Shown here: positions 1 to 63,920 of the stretch, piece after piece
How the letters are laid out: the number at the start of each line of letters is the position of its first letter
Numbering within the stretch: position 1 is the first letter of the stretch
Assembly (NCBI GenBank): GCA_017625405.1
Contig: JAGALB010000008.1
Location: 1 to 63,920 of the forward strand
From: Ruminiclostridium sp.
Lineage (GTDB): Bacteria > Bacillota > Clostridia > Oscillospirales > Ruminococcaceae
Reading direction: 5' to 3'
DNA: 63,920 nt
Notes under the pieces: model-generated
Told to the model about the DNA's origin: nothing
Database searches by the model: none
Seen by the model: the letters and a program-made list of their open reading frames with translations, nothing else
Made by a program: the position numbers and the translations under genes

Positions 1-61
1 TTAAGCCTGACAGGGTAAATTACCCTGTCAGGCTTAAATTAAAATTAAAAGTTTTCGGAAA
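1..61. repeat. 61-bp terminal repeat, left copy, with a 37-bp palindrome
   Basis: Identical base for base to 63860-63920 at the other end of the window. Positions 1-18 and 20-37 are perfect reverse complements around one central base, so the unit can form an 18-bp hairpin or cruciform. An AT-rich tail follows. Either the contig closes on itself or, more likely for a chromosomal region, both ends fall in copies of a dispersed repeat where assembly stopped. Confidence 0.9.
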
Positions 62-66
62 GGAGT

Positions 67-103
67 CTGAGGAAAAGCCCTTTTACAAAAGGGTTTTCCT
101 CAG
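67..103. repeat. Hairpin inside a dispersed intergenic element
   Basis: Positions 67-76 pair with 94-103 and 78-84 with 87-93, with one bulged G at 77. The surrounding 45-125 resembles, in inverted orientation, the element at 63768-63855: both contain a G-rich stretch, a hairpin and then CTTCTATA. No coding potential is seen. Confidence 0.6.
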
Positions 104-8535: not shown

Positions 8536-9177
8536 TTATTCCTTTTCTATTATTCTGCATAAATCAGCATTTATCTCTTCTATTGTTCTCGGATTGTCGC
8601 CTTTATTGCAGGGTATTATTATCCAGCCGTCACGGCTTGCAACGTATAAGGCAGCTTCACGGCAGGCTTTCAGGAAATCCACATTCTGTTCGTGAATATC
8701 CTTTTTGCTTTCGTCGCCGTCATAGCGTGCGGAAAGAAGCTTCTGGGAGATTTCGACGGGCATGTCCAGGAAAACCGTCTTATCGGGTCTGGGAAGCCCC
8801 ATTTTTCCATATTCGAAATCATAAAGCCAGTCAAGGTAGCTGTCCCATTCGCTTTTCTGAAGCTTTGTCATCTGATAGATGGCGTTTGAGGTGGTATATC
8901 TTGCGGAGATAACGGGTGCGCCGCTTTCGTAAAGCTCCTGCCAGTGTGTCTTGAAGCTTGTGTAGCGGTCGACAGCGTAGATTGCACTTGCGGAATATGC
9001 GCTTGCGGAAGGATTTTCTTCGTGGAATTTTCCTGCCAGATAATCGCTTACGATTTTACCGCTGTTAGTATTATAATAAGGGAAGGTGATAAAATGTGCG
9101 TCGGTAAATTTTTCTTTCAGCATTTCAAACTGTGTGGATTTTCCGCATCCGTCAAGTCCGTCAATTACGAAAAGCAC
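8536..9177 (-). CDS. tmk: Thymidylate kinase family protein
   Basis: Phosphorylates dTMP to dTDP with ATP. The P-loop GLDGCGKST is at about residues 7-15. AIYAVDRYTSF and the later SARYTTSNAIYQMTKL correspond to the DR-Y substrate region, though the DRY/F block is diverged from classical Tmk. Length is about 213 residues. GTG at 9186 overlaps the AAGGAG site, so the GTG at 9177, eight bases away, is preferred. It is the first gene of the minus-strand run that continues to ksgA. A related deoxynucleoside kinase role cannot be excluded. Confidence 0.8.
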   Translation of the reverse strand: MLFVIDGLDGCGKSTQFEMLKEKFTDAHFITFPYYNTNSGKIVSDYLAGKFHEENPSASAYSASAIYAVDRYTSFKTHWQELYESGAPVISARYTTSNAIYQMTKLQKSEWDSYLDWLYDFEYGKMGLPRPDKTVFLDMPVEISQKLLSARYDGDESKKDIHEQNVDFLKACREAALYVASRDGWIIIPCNKGDNPRTIEEINADLCRIIEKE

Positions 9178-9213
9178 CTGAAACACTCCTTTTTAAACAT
9201 AATATATCAGTTT

Positions 9214-9242
9214 ATTGTAGCATATTTGAGAAAAATAGTCAA
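9214..9242 (-). promoter_or_regulatory. Sigma-A promoter for the tmk-led minus-strand run
   Basis: On the minus strand TTGACT (9242-9237) and TACAAT (9219-9214) are 17 bases apart, and TGC before TACAAT gives an extended -10. The tmk ribosome site follows about 25 bases on. Confidence 0.75.
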
Positions 9243-9268
9243 GTACGGTAACGTAGGGGGGCTAAAAA

Positions 9269-9392
9269 GCAGGGACAGGGTGAAGCGGCACGCATAACTT
9301 TTGTGTATTAAAACATTTTGCTTATCCCTGCCGTTTTGCTTTTCCGACAGAGCAGATTTTTTAAAAGGCAGGGACAGGGTGAAGCGGCACGC
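9269..9392 (+). repeat. 25-bp direct repeat pair before the CDF gene
   Basis: The 25 bases at 9269-9293 (GCAGGGACAGGG, then TGAAGCGGCACGC) recur exactly at 9368-9392. The motif looks like a variant of the GGCAGG...GGCACGCC family. Between them, 9334-9345 contains the inverted core CCCTGCCG. The second copy ends four bases before the operator palindrome. Confidence 0.75.
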
Positions 9393-9395
9393 TTC

Positions 9396-9416
9396 ATGTT
9401 AGTTATTGACTAACAT
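9396..9416 (+). promoter_or_regulatory. Candidate operator: 21-bp palindrome over the CDF -35 box
   Basis: Perfect 8-base arms ATGTTAGT (9396-9403) and ACTAACAT (9409-9416) flank TATTG. The palindrome covers the -35 hexamer (9406-9411), a typical repressor position. The GTTAG/CTAAC half-sites recall DtxR- or MarR-type operators. No regulator gene is nearby, so its identity is open. Confidence 0.65.
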
Positions 9417-9435
9417 TATAGTTTTGTGTTATATT
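9406..9435 (+). promoter_or_regulatory. Promoter of the CDF exporter gene
   Basis: TTGACT at 9406-9411 with TTATAT (9429-9434, 17-base spacer) or TATATT (9430-9435). The start codon at 9466 is preceded by GGAGG (9453-9457). Confidence 0.7.
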
Positions 9436-9465
9436 AATCAAAACCGACAAACGGAGGTATGACAA

Positions 9466-10632
9466 ATGATATCGCTTCTTTCGAGAATTTTCATAAAGGA
9501 TTATAAAAACGTCACTGACCCTGCTGTCCGCAGAGGTTACGGTATGCTTACGGGAATAATGGGCATAGTGCTGAATCTCCTGTTATTCGGCGGAAAGCTT
9601 TTCGCAGGTATTATAACAGGTGCGATTTCCGTAACCGCAGACGCATTCAACAACCTTTCTGATGCGGGTACATCGGTTATTTCCATGGTGGGTATAAAGC
9701 TTGCAGGCAGACCCGCCGACAAGGAACATCCCTTCGGCCACGGCAGAATGGAGTATGTGGCGGGACTTGCGGTAGCTGCGGTTATCCTGATAATGGGTTA
9801 TGAACTTGGCAAAGACAGTATAATCAAGATTTTCAATCCCGAAGAGGTTACCTTCAACGTGGTTTCGCTGATAATTCTCGGTGCCTCGGTGCTGGTTAAA
9901 TTCTATATCTGCCTCTACAACAGAAAGATAGGAAAGCTTGTGAATTCTCCTGCAATGAAAGCCACTGCCGTAGACAGCCTTTCTGACTGCATATCAACCG
10001 CTGCGGTTATTGCAGGCCTTGTTGTATATGAAATATTCAGCGTCAATATTGACGGTTACGTAGGTATACTTGTTGCGTTATTCATTTTCAAGGCAGGCTT
10101 TGAAGCCGCGAAGGAAAGCCTCACCCCCCTTATCGGCGAACGCCCTGACAGCGATTATGTAAAGGAAATTGAAAGCACGGTAATGGGCTATGAGGGAATT
10201 ATCGGAATCCATGACCTTATCGTTCACAATTACGGTGTAGGCTCGAACATCATTTCTCTTCATGCGGAAGTTCCCTCGGAAATGGGATTTATGGAGGCTC
10301 ATGAGCTGATTGACGTAATCGAGAATGACCTGAAGGAAAAATATGCCGCTGTGGCTACTGTACATATGGACCCTGTGGAAACTACCAATGAAACTGCACG
10401 TAAATACAAGGAGCTTGTAAAAAGCTTTATTTCGGAAATCAGCCCTGAAATTTCCATGCATGATTTCCGCATGACCGATGGCGTGAAGAACCGCAACCTT
10501 ATTTTTGATGTGGTAGTTCCTTACAAATTCAGAATGAATGATAATGCCATAAAGGCACTTATCTGTGAAAAAATAAAGCGTGAAGATGAAAATCTCAACG
10601 CAGTTATCACAATTGATAAGGAAATGGCATAA
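9466..10632 (+). CDS. Cation diffusion facilitator exporter, Mn(II)-type metal site
   Basis: A 388-residue CDF protein with six N-terminal transmembrane helices and a cytoplasmic domain from about residue 215. The transport site reads N62-x3-D66 in helix 2 (TADAFNNLSDAG) and D170-x3-D174 in helix 5 (ATAVDSLSDC). This N-D/D-D pattern is that of manganese exporters such as pneumococcal MntE; zinc members use HxxxD in helix 5. Manganese export is therefore inferred, though Fe(II) is possible. HPFGHGRMEYVAGL is the family's conserved loop. The C-terminal part carries HDLIVHNYGVG and HAEVP, the usual dimerising domain. It stands alone, with its own operator-bearing promoter, and the cloverleaf element starts at the base after its stop codon. 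Confidence 0.9.
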   Translation: MISLLSRIFIKDYKNVTDPAVRRGYGMLTGIMGIVLNLLLFGGKLFAGIITGAISVTADAFNNLSDAGTSVISMVGIKLAGRPADKEHPFGHGRMEYVAGLAVAAVILIMGYELGKDSIIKIFNPEEVTFNVVSLIILGASVLVKFYICLYNRKIGKLVNSPAMKATAVDSLSDCISTAAVIAGLVVYEIFSVNIDGYVGILVALFIFKAGFEAAKESLTPLIGERPDSDYVKEIESTVMGYEGIIGIHDLIVHNYGVGSNIISLHAEVPSEMGFMEAHELIDVIENDLKEKYAAVATVHMDPVETTNETARKYKELVKSFISEISPEISMHDFRMTDGVKNRNLIFDVVVPYKFRMNDNAIKALICEKIKREDENLNAVITIDKEMA

Positions 10633-10744
10633 GGCGACACACGTGCTTTTTCTGCGGCTTTGCCGCAGAAAAAGCAAACCGCCGGCAGCATCTTCGATGC
10701 TGCCGGCGGTTGTTTTTGCAGTACTGCAAAAACCGTGTGTCGCC
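10633..10744. repeat. 112-bp perfect cloverleaf element: closing stem plus three hairpins
   Basis: An 11-bp closing stem (10633-10643 with 10734-10744) encloses three back-to-back hairpins. Hairpin 1 has a 14-bp stem (10645-10658 with 10662-10675) and loop TTT. Hairpin 2 has a 16-bp stem (10677-10692 with 10696-10711) and a TTC loop. Hairpin 3 is a 22-base palindrome (10712-10722 with 10723-10733). Every pairing is exact. Outside loops, only 10644 and 10676 are unpaired. It begins right after the CDF stop codon. It has no terminal T run, so it is not a standard terminator. Possible natures are a non-autonomous mobile element, a structured RNA 3' end, or a protein-binding DNA cruciform. Confidence 0.9.
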
Positions 10745-10778
10745 GTGTATTTATGCACCCGAGGGATTATTTTTTGCC

Positions 10779-10822
10779 GCAGCAGCTTCTGCCCGCAATA
10801 CTTCACAGGAATAAGCTGCTGC
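10779..10822. repeat. Inverted repeat downstream of the cloverleaf
   Basis: GCAGCAGCTT (10779-10788) and AAGCTGCTGC (10813-10822) are perfect 10-base arms around a 24-base loop. It may belong to the same element as the cloverleaf 35 bases upstream. The rest of 10745-10924 shows no gene. Confidence 0.6.
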
Positions 10823-10924
10823 ATTTTCTGCGTATGCAGTCTGTAAAATATATGCAACGTAAACGAAAATAATTACCGTTTTTTTAAATTTAGCATAAAA
10901 AGGGAGAAATTCAAGTAATTTTCA

Positions 10925-10953
10925 TTGCTATTTTGTCGGAATTATGTTATACT
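10925..10953 (+). promoter_or_regulatory. Promoter of the sugar-phosphate transferase gene
   Basis: TTGCTA (10925-10930), a 17-base spacer and an extended -10, TGTTATACT ending at 10953. AAGGAG follows at 10971-10976. Confidence 0.65.
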
Positions 10954-10983
10954 TTAGCCATAACGTCCGAAAGGAGCGATATG

Positions 10984-12390
10984 ATGTTCAGAACACCACG
11001 CACAGGAACTAATGTCAAACGTCTTGTTATCTTCCTGAATGCGCTTTTCAATACATTATTATATACATCAATCTTTGCCTTTGTGTGGGAGGAATATTAC
11101 AACCCTCCGCTTAATAATATGGGCTTTTTCAAAAACGGTAATATTATTCTCTATTTCATCTATGCGGTAATCTACTTTATCCTTGTTGAAATGTACGGCG
11201 GCTTCAGGATAGGAAGTCTGAGAATTACCGACTCGGTATTCACTCAGGTGATAACAGTAACCCTCACCGACGGTATTGCTTATCTTCTTATGTGCCTTAT
11301 TGCCAGACGTATACTTAATCCGCTGATACTTATTGCGACACTTCCTGTGGTTGTGTGTGTGACACTTCTTTGGAGCGTATACATACACCGCAATTTCGCA
11401 AGATTGTTCCCGCCCAAGAAGATGATTCTCGTGTACGCAAACAAATCCGCCCGTTCTCTTGTGTATAAGATGAGCAAGCGCTATGATAAGTTCATTATCT
11501 GTGCCGCAATCAATGTGGATGAAGGCTTTGAAAGGATTTCCCGTGAAATTCTGAATTTTGATGCTGTTGTAATCTGCGATACGGAAAACCGTATCAGAAA
11601 TGATATTCTCAAATTCTGCTTCAAGCATAAAATCGTTACATATGTAACCCCGAAGATTTCCGATATTATAATCAGAGGCTCGGAGGAACTGCATATTCTG
11701 GATACTCCGTTGCTGGTGAGTCGTAATTTCGGCGCAAAGATGGAGCAGAGAATCATAAAGAGAGCTTTTGATTTTGTGGTATCTCTTATTGCGCTGATTG
11801 TGCTTTCTCCGTTCCTGCTTATAACCGCAATCGCAGTAAAGGCATATGACGGCGGTCCTGCAATATACAAGCAGAAGCGTCTTACTTACGGTGGAAAGGA
11901 ATTTTATCTCTATAAATTCCGTTCGATGGTGGTTGATGCGGAAAAGGACGGCAAGGCAAGACTTGCGGCACAGGGCGACAGCAGAATCACACCTGTGGGC
12001 GAGTTTATCCGTAAGACAAGACTGGATGAGCTTCCTCAGCTTATAAATATTCTTAAAGGCGAAATGTCAATTGTCGGTCCCAGACCCGAGCGTCCCGAAA
12101 TAGCAAAGGAATATGAGGAAACAATTCCCGAATTCAGCTTCCGCCTTAATGCCAAGGCAGGCCTTACAGGCTATGCACAGGTTATGGGCAAGTATAACAC
12201 CACACCTTATGACAAGCTGAAGATGGACCTTATCTATATTGAGAATTTCTCGATTTTACTTGACCTTAAGATTATGTTCATGACCATACGCACTATCTTT
12301 GAAAAGGAAAGCACCGAGGGTATCGACGAATCGGCACTTAACGCAATGGATATGAGCTATAAGGAAACAGAAGAAAAAGTGACAGTTTAA
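10984..12390 (+). CDS. Polyprenyl-phosphate sugar-1-phosphate transferase (bacterial sugar transferase family)
   Basis: A monotopic phosphoglycosyl transferase that loads the first sugar phosphate onto undecaprenyl phosphate, starting a surface polysaccharide unit. The N-terminal half holds about four hydrophobic helices and a Rossmann-like linker. The C-terminal catalytic domain begins at AFDFVVSLIALIVLSPFLL and contains KQKRLTYGGKEFYLYKFRSM, RKTRLDELPQLINILKGEMS and VGPRPERPE, with the Asp-Glu pair of LDEL as catalytic core. Length is about 468 residues. ATG codons at 10981 and 10984 lie four and seven bases after AAGGAG; the second is chosen. No other glycan genes are adjacent, so the sugar is unknown. 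Its promoter lies upstream and a terminator-bearing repeat downstream, so it looks monocistronic. Confidence 0.9.
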   Translation: MFRTPRTGTNVKRLVIFLNALFNTLLYTSIFAFVWEEYYNPPLNNMGFFKNGNIILYFIYAVIYFILVEMYGGFRIGSLRITDSVFTQVITVTLTDGIAYLLMCLIARRILNPLILIATLPVVVCVTLLWSVYIHRNFARLFPPKKMILVYANKSARSLVYKMSKRYDKFIICAAINVDEGFERISREILNFDAVVICDTENRIRNDILKFCFKHKIVTYVTPKISDIIIRGSEELHILDTPLLVSRNFGAKMEQRIIKRAFDFVVSLIALIVLSPFLLITAIAVKAYDGGPAIYKQKRLTYGGKEFYLYKFRSMVVDAEKDGKARLAAQGDSRITPVGEFIRKTRLDELPQLINILKGEMSIVGPRPERPEIAKEYEETIPEFSFRLNAKAGLTGYAQVMGKYNTTPYDKLKMDLIYIENFSILLDLKIMFMTIRTIFEKESTEGIDESALNAMDMSYKETEEKVTV

Positions 12391-12430
12391 AAGGACAGCC
12401 TGCCGTGTCCGTCATATAATAGTTTTTAAT

Positions 12431-12500
12431 CCCGCCGTTTTGCAACTGCGGGATTAATCGTTTCTTATAAAAGGCAGGAACTGCCAAAGGCGGCACGCCT
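12431..12500 (+). repeat. GGCAGGAAYTGCC-family dispersed repeat, copy B (full form)
   Basis: Order of blocks: CCCGCCGTTTT, GCAACTGCGGGATTAA, CGTTTCTTATAAAAGGC, AGGAACTGCC, AAAGGCGGCACGCC. The reverse complement of 37313-37380 follows the same order. CCCGC/GCGGG can pair as one stem and GGCAG/CTGCC as another. Confidence 0.75.
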
Positions 12501-43350: not shown

Positions 43351-43398
43351 AAATTCTTTACGCAAAAACAGATTTATCTGTTTTTGCGTAAAGAATTT
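43351..43398 (+). promoter_or_regulatory. Perfect 23-bp hairpin in front of mutS
   Basis: 43351-43373 is the exact reverse complement of 43376-43398, leaving a two-base centre (so an effective loop of about four to six). It ends 13 bases before the mutS ribosome site and lacks a T run, so it is not a standard terminator. It could protect or control the mutS message, or be part of the neighbouring repeat element. Confidence 0.75.
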
Positions 43399-63767: not shown

Positions 63768-63859
63768 CTCATATAGAAGTTTTATAAGTATTTATCGTGG
63801 GACACCTTTCTGTAGAAAGGTTATCCCCCGAACCCCCTTCCAAAGACTTTAATAATGAT
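63768..63859 (-). repeat. Dispersed intergenic element at the right end
   Basis: Contains a hairpin ACCTTTCT/AGAAAGGT (63804-63811 with 63814-63821), a CCCCCGAACCCCCTTCC stretch and TATAGAAG. Its reverse complement parallels 45-125 at the other end of the window. No gene is seen in 63743-63859. Confidence 0.55.
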
Positions 63860-63920
63860 TTAAGCCTGACAGGGTAAATTACCCTGTCAGGCTTAAATTA
63901 AAATTAAAAGTTTTCGGAAA
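63860..63920. repeat. 61-bp terminal repeat, right copy
   Basis: Identical to 1-61. Here the upstream flank extends the palindrome: arms grow from 18 to 20 bases (63858 onward), matching bases 38-39 of the left copy's continuation. Confidence 0.9.

What the first reader, a model, noticed from the sequence alone, without database searches (positions are those of the whole stretch)
10633..10744. A perfect DNA/RNA cloverleaf right after the CDF stop codon
Four helices (11, 14, 16 and 11 bp) with no mismatch form a closed four-way junction in 112 bases, leaving only two unpaired bases outside the loops. Such perfect pairing is not expected by chance or from a terminator, and it has no T run. Exact pairing in all arms points to recent origin or strong selection for DNA folding, as in hairpin-ended replication origins, REP-type or transposon-end elements, or a structured RNA. 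A neighbouring 10-base inverted repeat at 10779-10822 may be part of it. I do not know a described family with this layout.
Basis: seen in the sequence. Interest (0 to 1): 0.78.

Follow-up and report, generated by a model that had tools for sequence, protein, structure and literature searches.

The report
Dispersed cloverleaf DNA elements, flipping tips
The perfect cloverleaf is one copy of a family of small intergenic DNA elements, found in this bacterium and some relatives, that keep a four-armed fold while their letters change and their hairpin tips flip, which points to folding of the DNA itself more than of an RNA.

Summary
The cloverleaf is real and far beyond chance: 112 bases, 51 Watson-Crick pairs, nothing unpaired outside three small loops (z -15.6). 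It is not unique. Structure-based searches found ten cloverleaves in this genome plus one weak candidate, and hits in six of 70 other genus genomes. Clear copies share a closing stem and three near-perfect arms with 3-4-base loops. Copies in this genome share almost no sequence; copies in G005/G028/G048 are visibly related. At five of five testable sites the nearest relative, G004, lacks the element. Of 1,169 predicted pairs six are G-U. Tips are enriched in GCGNAGC/GCAAAGC, a DNA mini-hairpin type. At one site shared by three species the stems are identical (0 of 88 positions) while loops differ, some exactly reverse-complemented. I read them as mobile or once mobile non-autonomous DNA elements whose arms are kept perfect, and tips inverted, by template switching at replication. 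What moves them is unknown; no Y1 transposase was found in this genome. The neighbouring inverted repeat is separate.

The parts
10633..10643 (.). closing stem, 5' strand (11 bp with 10734-10744)
   Evidence: sequence and fold
10644..10676 (.). arm 1: 15-bp perfect hairpin, loop TTT, tip GCTTTGC
10677..10711 (.). arm 2 (central): 16-bp perfect hairpin, loop TTC; with the T runs of its neighbours it matches an intrinsic terminator on both strands
10712..10733 (.). arm 3: 22-base palindrome, 9 bp with loop GTAC
10734..10744 (.). closing stem, 3' strand
   Evidence: ORF; orthologue in G004 77% identical, followed by the downstream sequence without the element
10933..12390 (+). downstream ORF in the same direction (looks like a sugar-phosphate transferase; name recalled, not tested)
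   Evidence: ORF

Best explanation
The element is one copy of a dispersed family of small (core about 90-115 bp) DNA elements whose shared property is a four-way-junction fold: one closing stem and three near-perfect arms capped by 3-4-base loops. Shown: the shared fold, dispersal between genes, presence/absence between related species, related copies with mostly paired changes, few G-U pairs, and inversion of loops while stems stay identical at one locus of three species. Inferred: the elements are or were mobile as non-autonomous units moved by an unknown enzyme. When the DNA is single-stranded, probably during replication, the arms fold as DNA hairpins; copying across the folded arm (template switching) turns most mismatches into perfect pairs and sometimes copies the tip the other way round. 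This would explain perfect arms, paired changes and flipped tips without an RNA function. Copies can be lost by deletion between short repeats. In this window the copy directly follows a stop codon and may also end transcription in both directions.
For: 1) Family in this genome. A perfect-hairpin scan of stretches found cloverleaves of other sequence. Model R1 (window copy plus 24 artificial pair-preserving variants) found CL3, CL4 and CL5 at E <= 4.2e-12. Model R2, built from 8 real copies, found two clear copies not used to build it (C22, E 4.6e-10; C45, E 2.9e-9) and a weak one (C51, E 0.001). 2) Relatives. R2 hit 7 of 71 genus genomes, own included, at E <= 0.01; in G005, G028 and G048 the closing stem is GGGCGGCGAAGCCGC/GCGGCTTCGCCGCCC, with GGA for GAA in one orthologous pair. 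3) Empty sites. Five of five testable sites (CL1, CL2, CL4, CL5, CL10) lack the element in G004 with flanking sequence in place. 4) DNA more than RNA. 1,163 Watson-Crick and 6 G-U pairs in 27 elements, against 11.6% G-U in folded shuffles. GCGNAGC/GCAAAGC tips (either strand) in 14 of 33 arms in G000 and 35 of 48 elsewhere, against 1 of 303 other perfect hairpins of at least 9 bp in the G000 sample, class B masked. PMC4686876 (passages read) calls GNA-loop mini-hairpins extraordinarily stable DNA, Tm 78 C for GCGAAGC. 5) Flips. At one site shared by G005, G028 and G048 every difference in the 97-base core lies in the loops (7, 3 and 5 of 9 loop positions; 0 of 88 others), flanks differing at 27 of 394, 92 of 390 and 85 of 386; GGA/TCC and AAA/TTT are exact reverse complements. 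A second orthologous pair shows GAA/TTC in one arm. 6) Template switching makes quasi-palindromes perfect in E. coli: PMC7202029 (abstract and part of the introduction); it can yield multi-base compensatory changes: PMC8794818 (abstract and part of the introduction).
Against: No moving enzyme was found: PF01797 has no match in this genome; other transposases were not searched. No clear target-site duplication at CL1 or CL10. G000 copies share almost no sequence (blastn, E <= 1e-3: only CL5-CL6, 23 bases), odd for recent copies of one source. Stems are not always corrected: in the orthologous pair G028 C9:7751 / G005 C6:54207 two stem positions changed on one side only, leaving one mismatch and one G-T pair. 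17 of 27 elements have an arm, mostly the central one, followed by at least 5 T in 8 bases (6 on both strands; 6 of 11 in G000), which fits a terminator. Ascertainment: CL2, CL6 and CL7 were found by a perfect-hairpin scan and R1 was trained on perfect pairs, so perfection is partly selected. The polarity of presence/absence has no outgroup: five losses in G004 would look the same, and at CL2 and CL4 G004 has other short sequence in place. Loop flips are shown at few sites, in one clade of close species.
Confidence: 0.55

Rival explanations
1. A transcription terminator or mRNA-stabilising 3' structure: the GC-rich central arm followed by the T-containing arm beside it stops transcription, in one or both directions. 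It could coexist with mobility.
For: Both strands of the window's central arm match the consensus and the element follows a stop codon. 17 of 27 elements have an arm followed by at least 5 T in 8 bases. 14 of 24 elements lie between genes in the same direction and 5 between convergent genes (ORF calls by script, some doubtful; G016 and G103 left out).
Against: 10 of 27 elements, 5 of 11 in G000, have no such tail. Four of 24 lie between divergent genes, among them CL5, where no gene ends (CL6 is uncertain). Where only one strand has the tail and the neighbours are readable (searches compared), it suits the reading direction at 2 loci (CL4; the G028 C9:7751 / G005 C6:54207 pair) and not at 4 (CL5; the G028 C9:18564 / G048 C1 locus; G028 C9:5216; G034). 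Other long perfect hairpins of this genome lack the special tip (1 of 303), and RNA would tolerate G-U pairs.
Confidence: 0.25
2. A structured non-coding RNA of unknown family.
For: Stable conserved fold and paired changes among related copies.
Against: No credible Rfam match, best 26.8 bits against a gathering score of 49. Six G-U pairs of 1,169; almost no unpaired residues to conserve; loops flip; the structure is nearly the same on both strands.
Confidence: 0.1
3. Independent local origin: each cloverleaf arose in place by repeated template switching at a small hairpin, with no transposition.
For: G000 copies share almost no sequence. Template switching can make perfect stems in one event (PMC8794818, abstract). 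At CL2 the G004 site holds a small hairpin (by eye).
Against: The same plan with the same tip types; a shared closing stem in G005/G028/G048; one element with the same arms at two places of G028; no precursor hairpin seen by eye at CL1, CL5 or CL10 in G004.
Confidence: 0.2
4. Classical REP/BIME elements moved by a RAYT transposase.
For: Intergenic, palindromic, lineage-specific, several hairpins in one unit.
Against: No Y1_Tnp in this genome. About ten copies, while PMC2817692 (abstract) says REPs usually exceed 100 copies per genome. No regular GTAG tag seen by eye, not counted.
Confidence: 0.05
5. An assembly artefact (fold-back chimaera).
For: G000 is a 64-contig draft.
Against: Ten or more copies of different sequence; the same locus in three other genomes with about 90-98% flank identity.
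Confidence: 0.02

Closest known systems
REP/BIME elements (GTAG and CGTC REPs)
   Same: Small palindromic intergenic repeats, some species-specific, some in units that may fold into larger structures (PMC3733652 and PMC2817692, abstracts).
   Different: Four-way junction with three near-perfect arms, GCGNAGC/GCAAAGC-type tips, about ten copies, almost no shared sequence among copies in G000, no Y1/RAYT gene in the genome.
Repetitive hairpin-forming / double-hairpin elements of mitochondrial DNA
   Same: Hairpin elements invading intergenic regions, scattered distribution, structurally and compositionally divergent (PMC2800124, abstract; listing).
   Different: Bacterial chromosome; closed cloverleaf; tip inversion between orthologues.
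MITEs (non-autonomous DNA transposons; features recalled)
   Same: Short, intergenic, inverted-repeat ends (the closing stem), present or absent between relatives.
   Different: No target-site duplication or parent transposon seen; interior made of further palindromes; extreme sequence turnover in G000.
AAV inverted terminal repeat (works-like only; recalled)
   Same: Nested palindromes forming a multi-armed DNA structure; inner segments occur in inverted orientations (flip/flop).
   Different: Not at a DNA end, no replication protein known; here only loops of single arms are seen inverted.
Quasi-palindromes subject to template-switch correction
   Same: The mutational process proposed for keeping arms perfect (PMC7202029, PMC8794818).
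   Different: Those are local sequences, not a dispersed family with a fixed plan.

Membership tests
REP/BIME-RAYT | Y1/RAYT transposase in the genome | tested here: not met
   PF01797: 0 matches in own genome; the control rings in 5 of 14 genomes. Draft assembly, so a loss is possible; G028 clade not tested.
REP/BIME-RAYT | GTAG or CGTC tag beside the palindrome | tested here: inconclusive
   By eye no regular tag; GTAG occurs beside a minority (for example G005_C31b); not counted.
MITE | terminal inverted repeats, short, intergenic, without a gene of its own | tested here: met
   Closing stems and contexts. Short ORFs cross some copies and were not studied.
MITE | target-site duplication | tested here: inconclusive
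   None clear at CL1 or CL10.
MITE | parent autonomous transposon | not tested
   Only the Y1 family was searched.
Intrinsic terminator | GC stem followed by a T run, at the end of genes | tested here: inconclusive
   Tail at 17 of 27 elements; window copy on both strands; strand and context often do not suit. No transcript data.
Known RNA families (Rfam 15) | score above the gathering threshold | tested here: not met
   window 9000-12500: best 26.8 bits against 49.
Mitochondrial RHE/DHE | located in mitochondrial DNA | tested here: not met
   Found in bacterial genomes; analogy only.
Phage or plasmid element | found in phage or plasmid records | tested here: not met
   Viral contigs: 0 for the window closing-stem pattern and 0 for the G028 pattern, exact matches only. 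Phage and plasmid collections searched with the G028 copy only: no match.

The most novel reading that the evidence does not exclude
A new class of bacterial mobile DNA recognised by its shape, not its sequence: a cloverleaf of single-stranded DNA with ultra-stable tips that an unknown enzyme moves or processes, so that the arm sequences are free to turn over while the four-way-junction fold is kept, with hairpin tips inverting at replication.
Probability: 0.3. Interest if true: 0.9.

Novelty: new variant of a known kind. Interest (0 to 1): 0.73.

Why it matters
If right, these elements are a natural record of what replication does to near-perfect DNA hairpins in a chromosome: arms copied onto themselves, tips inverted, structures lost by slippage. 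They would make the question of how compensatory changes arise testable in bacteria, and could extend recognition by shape (recalled example: integron attC sites) to a new mobile element. The structure-based search also shows a family that sequence search did not see in this genome.

Tried and rejected
Sequence search for copies of the window element: in the own genome only itself; among 99 genomes (own plus 98 relatives) other matches at E <= 0.001 were in G004 and G057, both in the flank, and in G096, covering one arm only (G096 not followed up). The exact closing-stem pattern is in 1 of 71 genus genomes, the own one.

Rfam gave nothing above threshold. The order-level search hit 3 of 394 genomes, but only 10 candidates per genome were scored and G034 and G048, positive, read as negative; it is no evidence of absence. 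Its G157 hit does not fold into a clean three-armed cloverleaf. The R1 genus search hit 2 of 71, G000 and weakly G103. The whole-genome R1 search found CL1, CL3, CL4 and CL5 of the 11 places. Local R1 with default filters found 6 of the 8 copies known then, with filters off 8 of 8. G016 and G103 copies are looser.

Controls: relaxed scan, 6 places in 562,381 bases of G000 (5 three-armed cloverleaves and 1 weak place) and 0 in a further 297,423; block shuffles of the same 859,804 bases gave 1 (whether three-armed was not printed). The first run of that control stopped with an error. A further 322,101 bases gave 3, two of them cloverleaves, CL6 and CL7.

Literature: eight searches showed no cloverleaf repeat of this kind in the titles and abstract starts listed; most subscription papers are not held. 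Papers seen as outline with abstract: PMC8794818, PMC2267715, PMC3733652, PMC4524435, PMC2800124, PMC7202029, PMC2817692; as passages: PMC4686876. Chloroplast hairpin inversions were searched for; no paper was read.

Dropped or incomplete: CL3 flank in G004 unresolved; CL6-CL9 and CL11 had no G004 flank on hand; class B is left out of the cloverleaf counts. In the G005-G048 and G028-G048 comparisons an upstream stretch aligns poorly, which inflates those flank differences. The count holds both strands of 8 elements chosen for structure, so its 16 rows are not independent.

Full report
OBSERVATION. The 112 bases at 10633-10744 form a closed four-way junction: an 11-bp closing stem and three hairpins of 15, 16 and 9 bp (the last can also be an 11-bp loopless palindrome), with no unpaired base outside the loops. 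The DNA fold is -62.7 kcal/mol against -20.35 +/- 2.71 in 200 shuffles. It directly follows the stop codon of the upstream gene.

EMPTY SITE. The neighbouring inverted repeat at 10779-10822 is present there, so it is separate.

A FAMILY BY STRUCTURE. At E <= 0.001 no sequence copy of the cloverleaf was found in the own genome or 98 relatives, apart from single-arm matches in G096. A script looking for closing stems filled with perfect hairpins, run on stretches of the own genome G000, found CL2, CL4, CL3, CL5, CL6 and CL7; a covariance model R1 made from the window copy and artificial pair-preserving variants had found CL3, CL4 and CL5 by whole-genome search before their stretches were taken and showed CL8 locally. 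With filters off R1 scores 8 of 8 copies at 40 bits or more on both strands. A model of those eight, R2, found two more clear copies and one weak one in the whole genome: 11 places in 21 rows. The places: CL1 window; CL2 C8:13102; CL3 C29:47724; CL4 C23:31739; CL5 C53:47499; CL6 C42:17376; CL7 C55:3945; CL8 C2:28114; CL9 C22:29301; CL10 C45:24825; CL11 C51:46669 (weak, a looser array of hairpins). In 1,181,905 bases of G000 R2 hit CL1-CL8 and part of one class B array; in 490,641 bases of other genomes, mainly G004, G014 and loci of relatives, nothing at E <= 1. The script found no cloverleaf in 200,000 bases of G014 and 176,747 of G004. CL1-CL8 cores have a GC content of 0.56-0.70 against 0.436 for the G000 stretches.

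RELATIVES. R2 hits 7 of 71 genus genomes at E <= 0.01: G000, G016, G103, G034, G005, G048 and G028; the G016 and G103 copies are looser. In G005, G028 and G048 the closing stem is GGGCGGCGAAGCCGC/GCGGCTTCGCCGCCC, with GGA for GAA in one orthologous pair, and arms of different copies are recognisably related but differ by paired changes, for instance CTTTCTTCGGGC, CTTTTGTTCGGGC, CTTTGCTTCGGGC and CTTTGTTTCGGGC, each with its perfect partner. Similarity among copies at different places mostly spans about 90-180 bp, so the unit reaches some 20-25 bp or more beyond the closing stem. One element occurs with the same arms at two places of G028.

PRESENCE AND ABSENCE. Flanking genes of CL2, CL4 and CL5 are in place in G004 and the element is missing; CL10 is missing too, cleanly. 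With CL1 that makes five of five testable sites. CL3 is unresolved; CL6-CL9 and CL11 were not testable with the DNA on hand. At CL2 and CL4 G004 has other short sequence in place. Without an outgroup, losses in G004 are possible. In G005 the orthologue of one G028 copy has lost nearly all of it by a deletion whose ends share CCCGC, so loss does happen.

DNA MORE THAN RNA. Over 27 elements the predicted folds hold 1,163 Watson-Crick and 6 G-U pairs; folded shuffles hold 11.6% G-U. CL2, CL6 and CL7 came from a perfect-hairpin scan and R1 favours perfect pairs, so part of this is selection of copies by me; CL9-CL11 and the copies elsewhere were mostly found with R2, and the six G-U pairs lie there. 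In the structure-fitted alignment of eight G000 copies (both strands, 16 rows, not independent) 97.8% of 718 cells pair, which shows the plan, not selection. Loops have 3 bases in 70 of 81 arms, and the tip GCGNAGC or GCAAAGC (either strand) occurs in 14 of 33 arms in G000 and 35 of 48 elsewhere, against 1 of 303 other perfect hairpins of at least 9 bp in the G000 sample, class B masked. Several arms elsewhere are copies of one another. PMC4686876 (passages) describes GNA-loop mini-hairpins with GC pairs as extraordinarily stable DNA.

FLIPPED TIPS. L283 (G005), L284 (G028) and L285 (G048) are one locus in three close species. The differences inside the 97-base core fall in the three loops: 7, 3 and 5 of 9 loop positions and 0 of 88 others; flanks differ at 27 of 394, 92 of 390 and 85 of 386 positions, the last two inflated by a poorly aligned stretch. 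GGA/TCC and AAA/TTT are exact reverse complements. A second orthologous pair (G028 C9:7751 and G005 C6:54207) has GAA/TTC in one arm, but also two one-sided stem changes that leave a mismatch in one species and a G-T pair in the other, so correction is not complete. Among 37 pairs of arms with identical 8-bp tips the loops were the same in 8, exact reverse complements in 8 and otherwise different in 21. GGA to TCC by substitution would need three hits in three bases beside unchanged stems, so I read these as inversions.

TERMINATOR SIGNAL. 17 of 27 elements have an arm, mostly the central one, followed by at least 5 T in 8 bases, 6 of them on both strands; in G000 6 of 11. Of 24 elements 14 lie between genes in the same direction, 5 between convergent and 4 between divergent genes, 1 near a contig end (ORFs of at least 90 codons by script, some doubtful; G016 and G103 left out). 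Where the tail is on one strand only and the neighbours are readable, it suits the reading direction at 2 loci and not at 4. So a terminator role is possible for many copies, the window's among them, but does not explain the family.

MECHANISM. Best reading: non-autonomous DNA elements that fold as single strands; the arms template their own repair during replication (template switching makes quasi-palindromes perfect in E. coli, PMC7202029; it can yield paired changes, PMC8794818), tips get inverted in the same way, and copies are lost by slippage. Shown are the family, the fold, the presence/absence and the pair and loop statistics. Inferred are mobility, single-strand folding in the cell and the copying mechanism. 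Unknown is what moves them: no Y1 transposase was found in the draft genome and other families were not searched. The puzzle that remains is why copies in G000 share almost no sequence although at least five are absent from G004: turnover is very fast, or the copies came from different sources, or some arose in place.

COMPARISON. Nearest kinds are REP/BIME, MITEs and the hairpin-forming repeats of mitochondrial DNA; none fits on all tested features. The held literature searched showed no such family in the listings I saw. I call it a new variant of dispersed hairpin repeats; recognition by shape would be a larger claim and is kept as the novel case.

Noticed in passing
window 10769-10826: The neighbouring inverted repeat is a separate conserved element: G004, G015 (same spot) and G057 (another locus) share the core CTGCCYGCRATNTTTCNCRGRAATR, with flanking sequence that varies and in part pairs. 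No credible Rfam match; could be an unknown RNA motif.
   Followed up: partly
G000 C8:17640 and 19195; C17:26117 and 27645; C6:9356 and 16500; C22:22820 (L207-L216): A second repeat family (class B), at seven places in G000 and only two short weak hits in 70 other genus genomes: two or three perfect hairpins in a row without a closing stem, the first varying by paired changes. R2 matches part of a similar array at L152:12890, so it may be kin to the cloverleaves.
   Followed up: partly
window 1-37 and 63858-63898: A near-identical palindrome TTAAGCCTGACAGGGTAA.. stands near both ends of the window contig and at ends of other contigs (L139, L194, L202, L204); the assembly seems to break at this dispersed repeat.
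   Followed up: no
window 67-103; L154, L159, L161, L196, L202, L255: A dispersed hairpin of the type TTGAGGGAAACCCTTTT..AAAAGGGTTTCCCTCAA, perfect in six other stretches and 88% in the window.
   Followed up: no
window 43351-43398: A 23-bp perfect inverted repeat with 2 bases between the arms.
   Followed up: no
L308:6860-6930 (G005) against L296:5150-5400 (G028): Orthologous site where the cloverleaf was lost by a deletion with CCCGC at both ends.
   Followed up: yes
L309:1402-1697 (G005): Two cloverleaves about 105 bp apart in one intergenic region.
   Followed up: no
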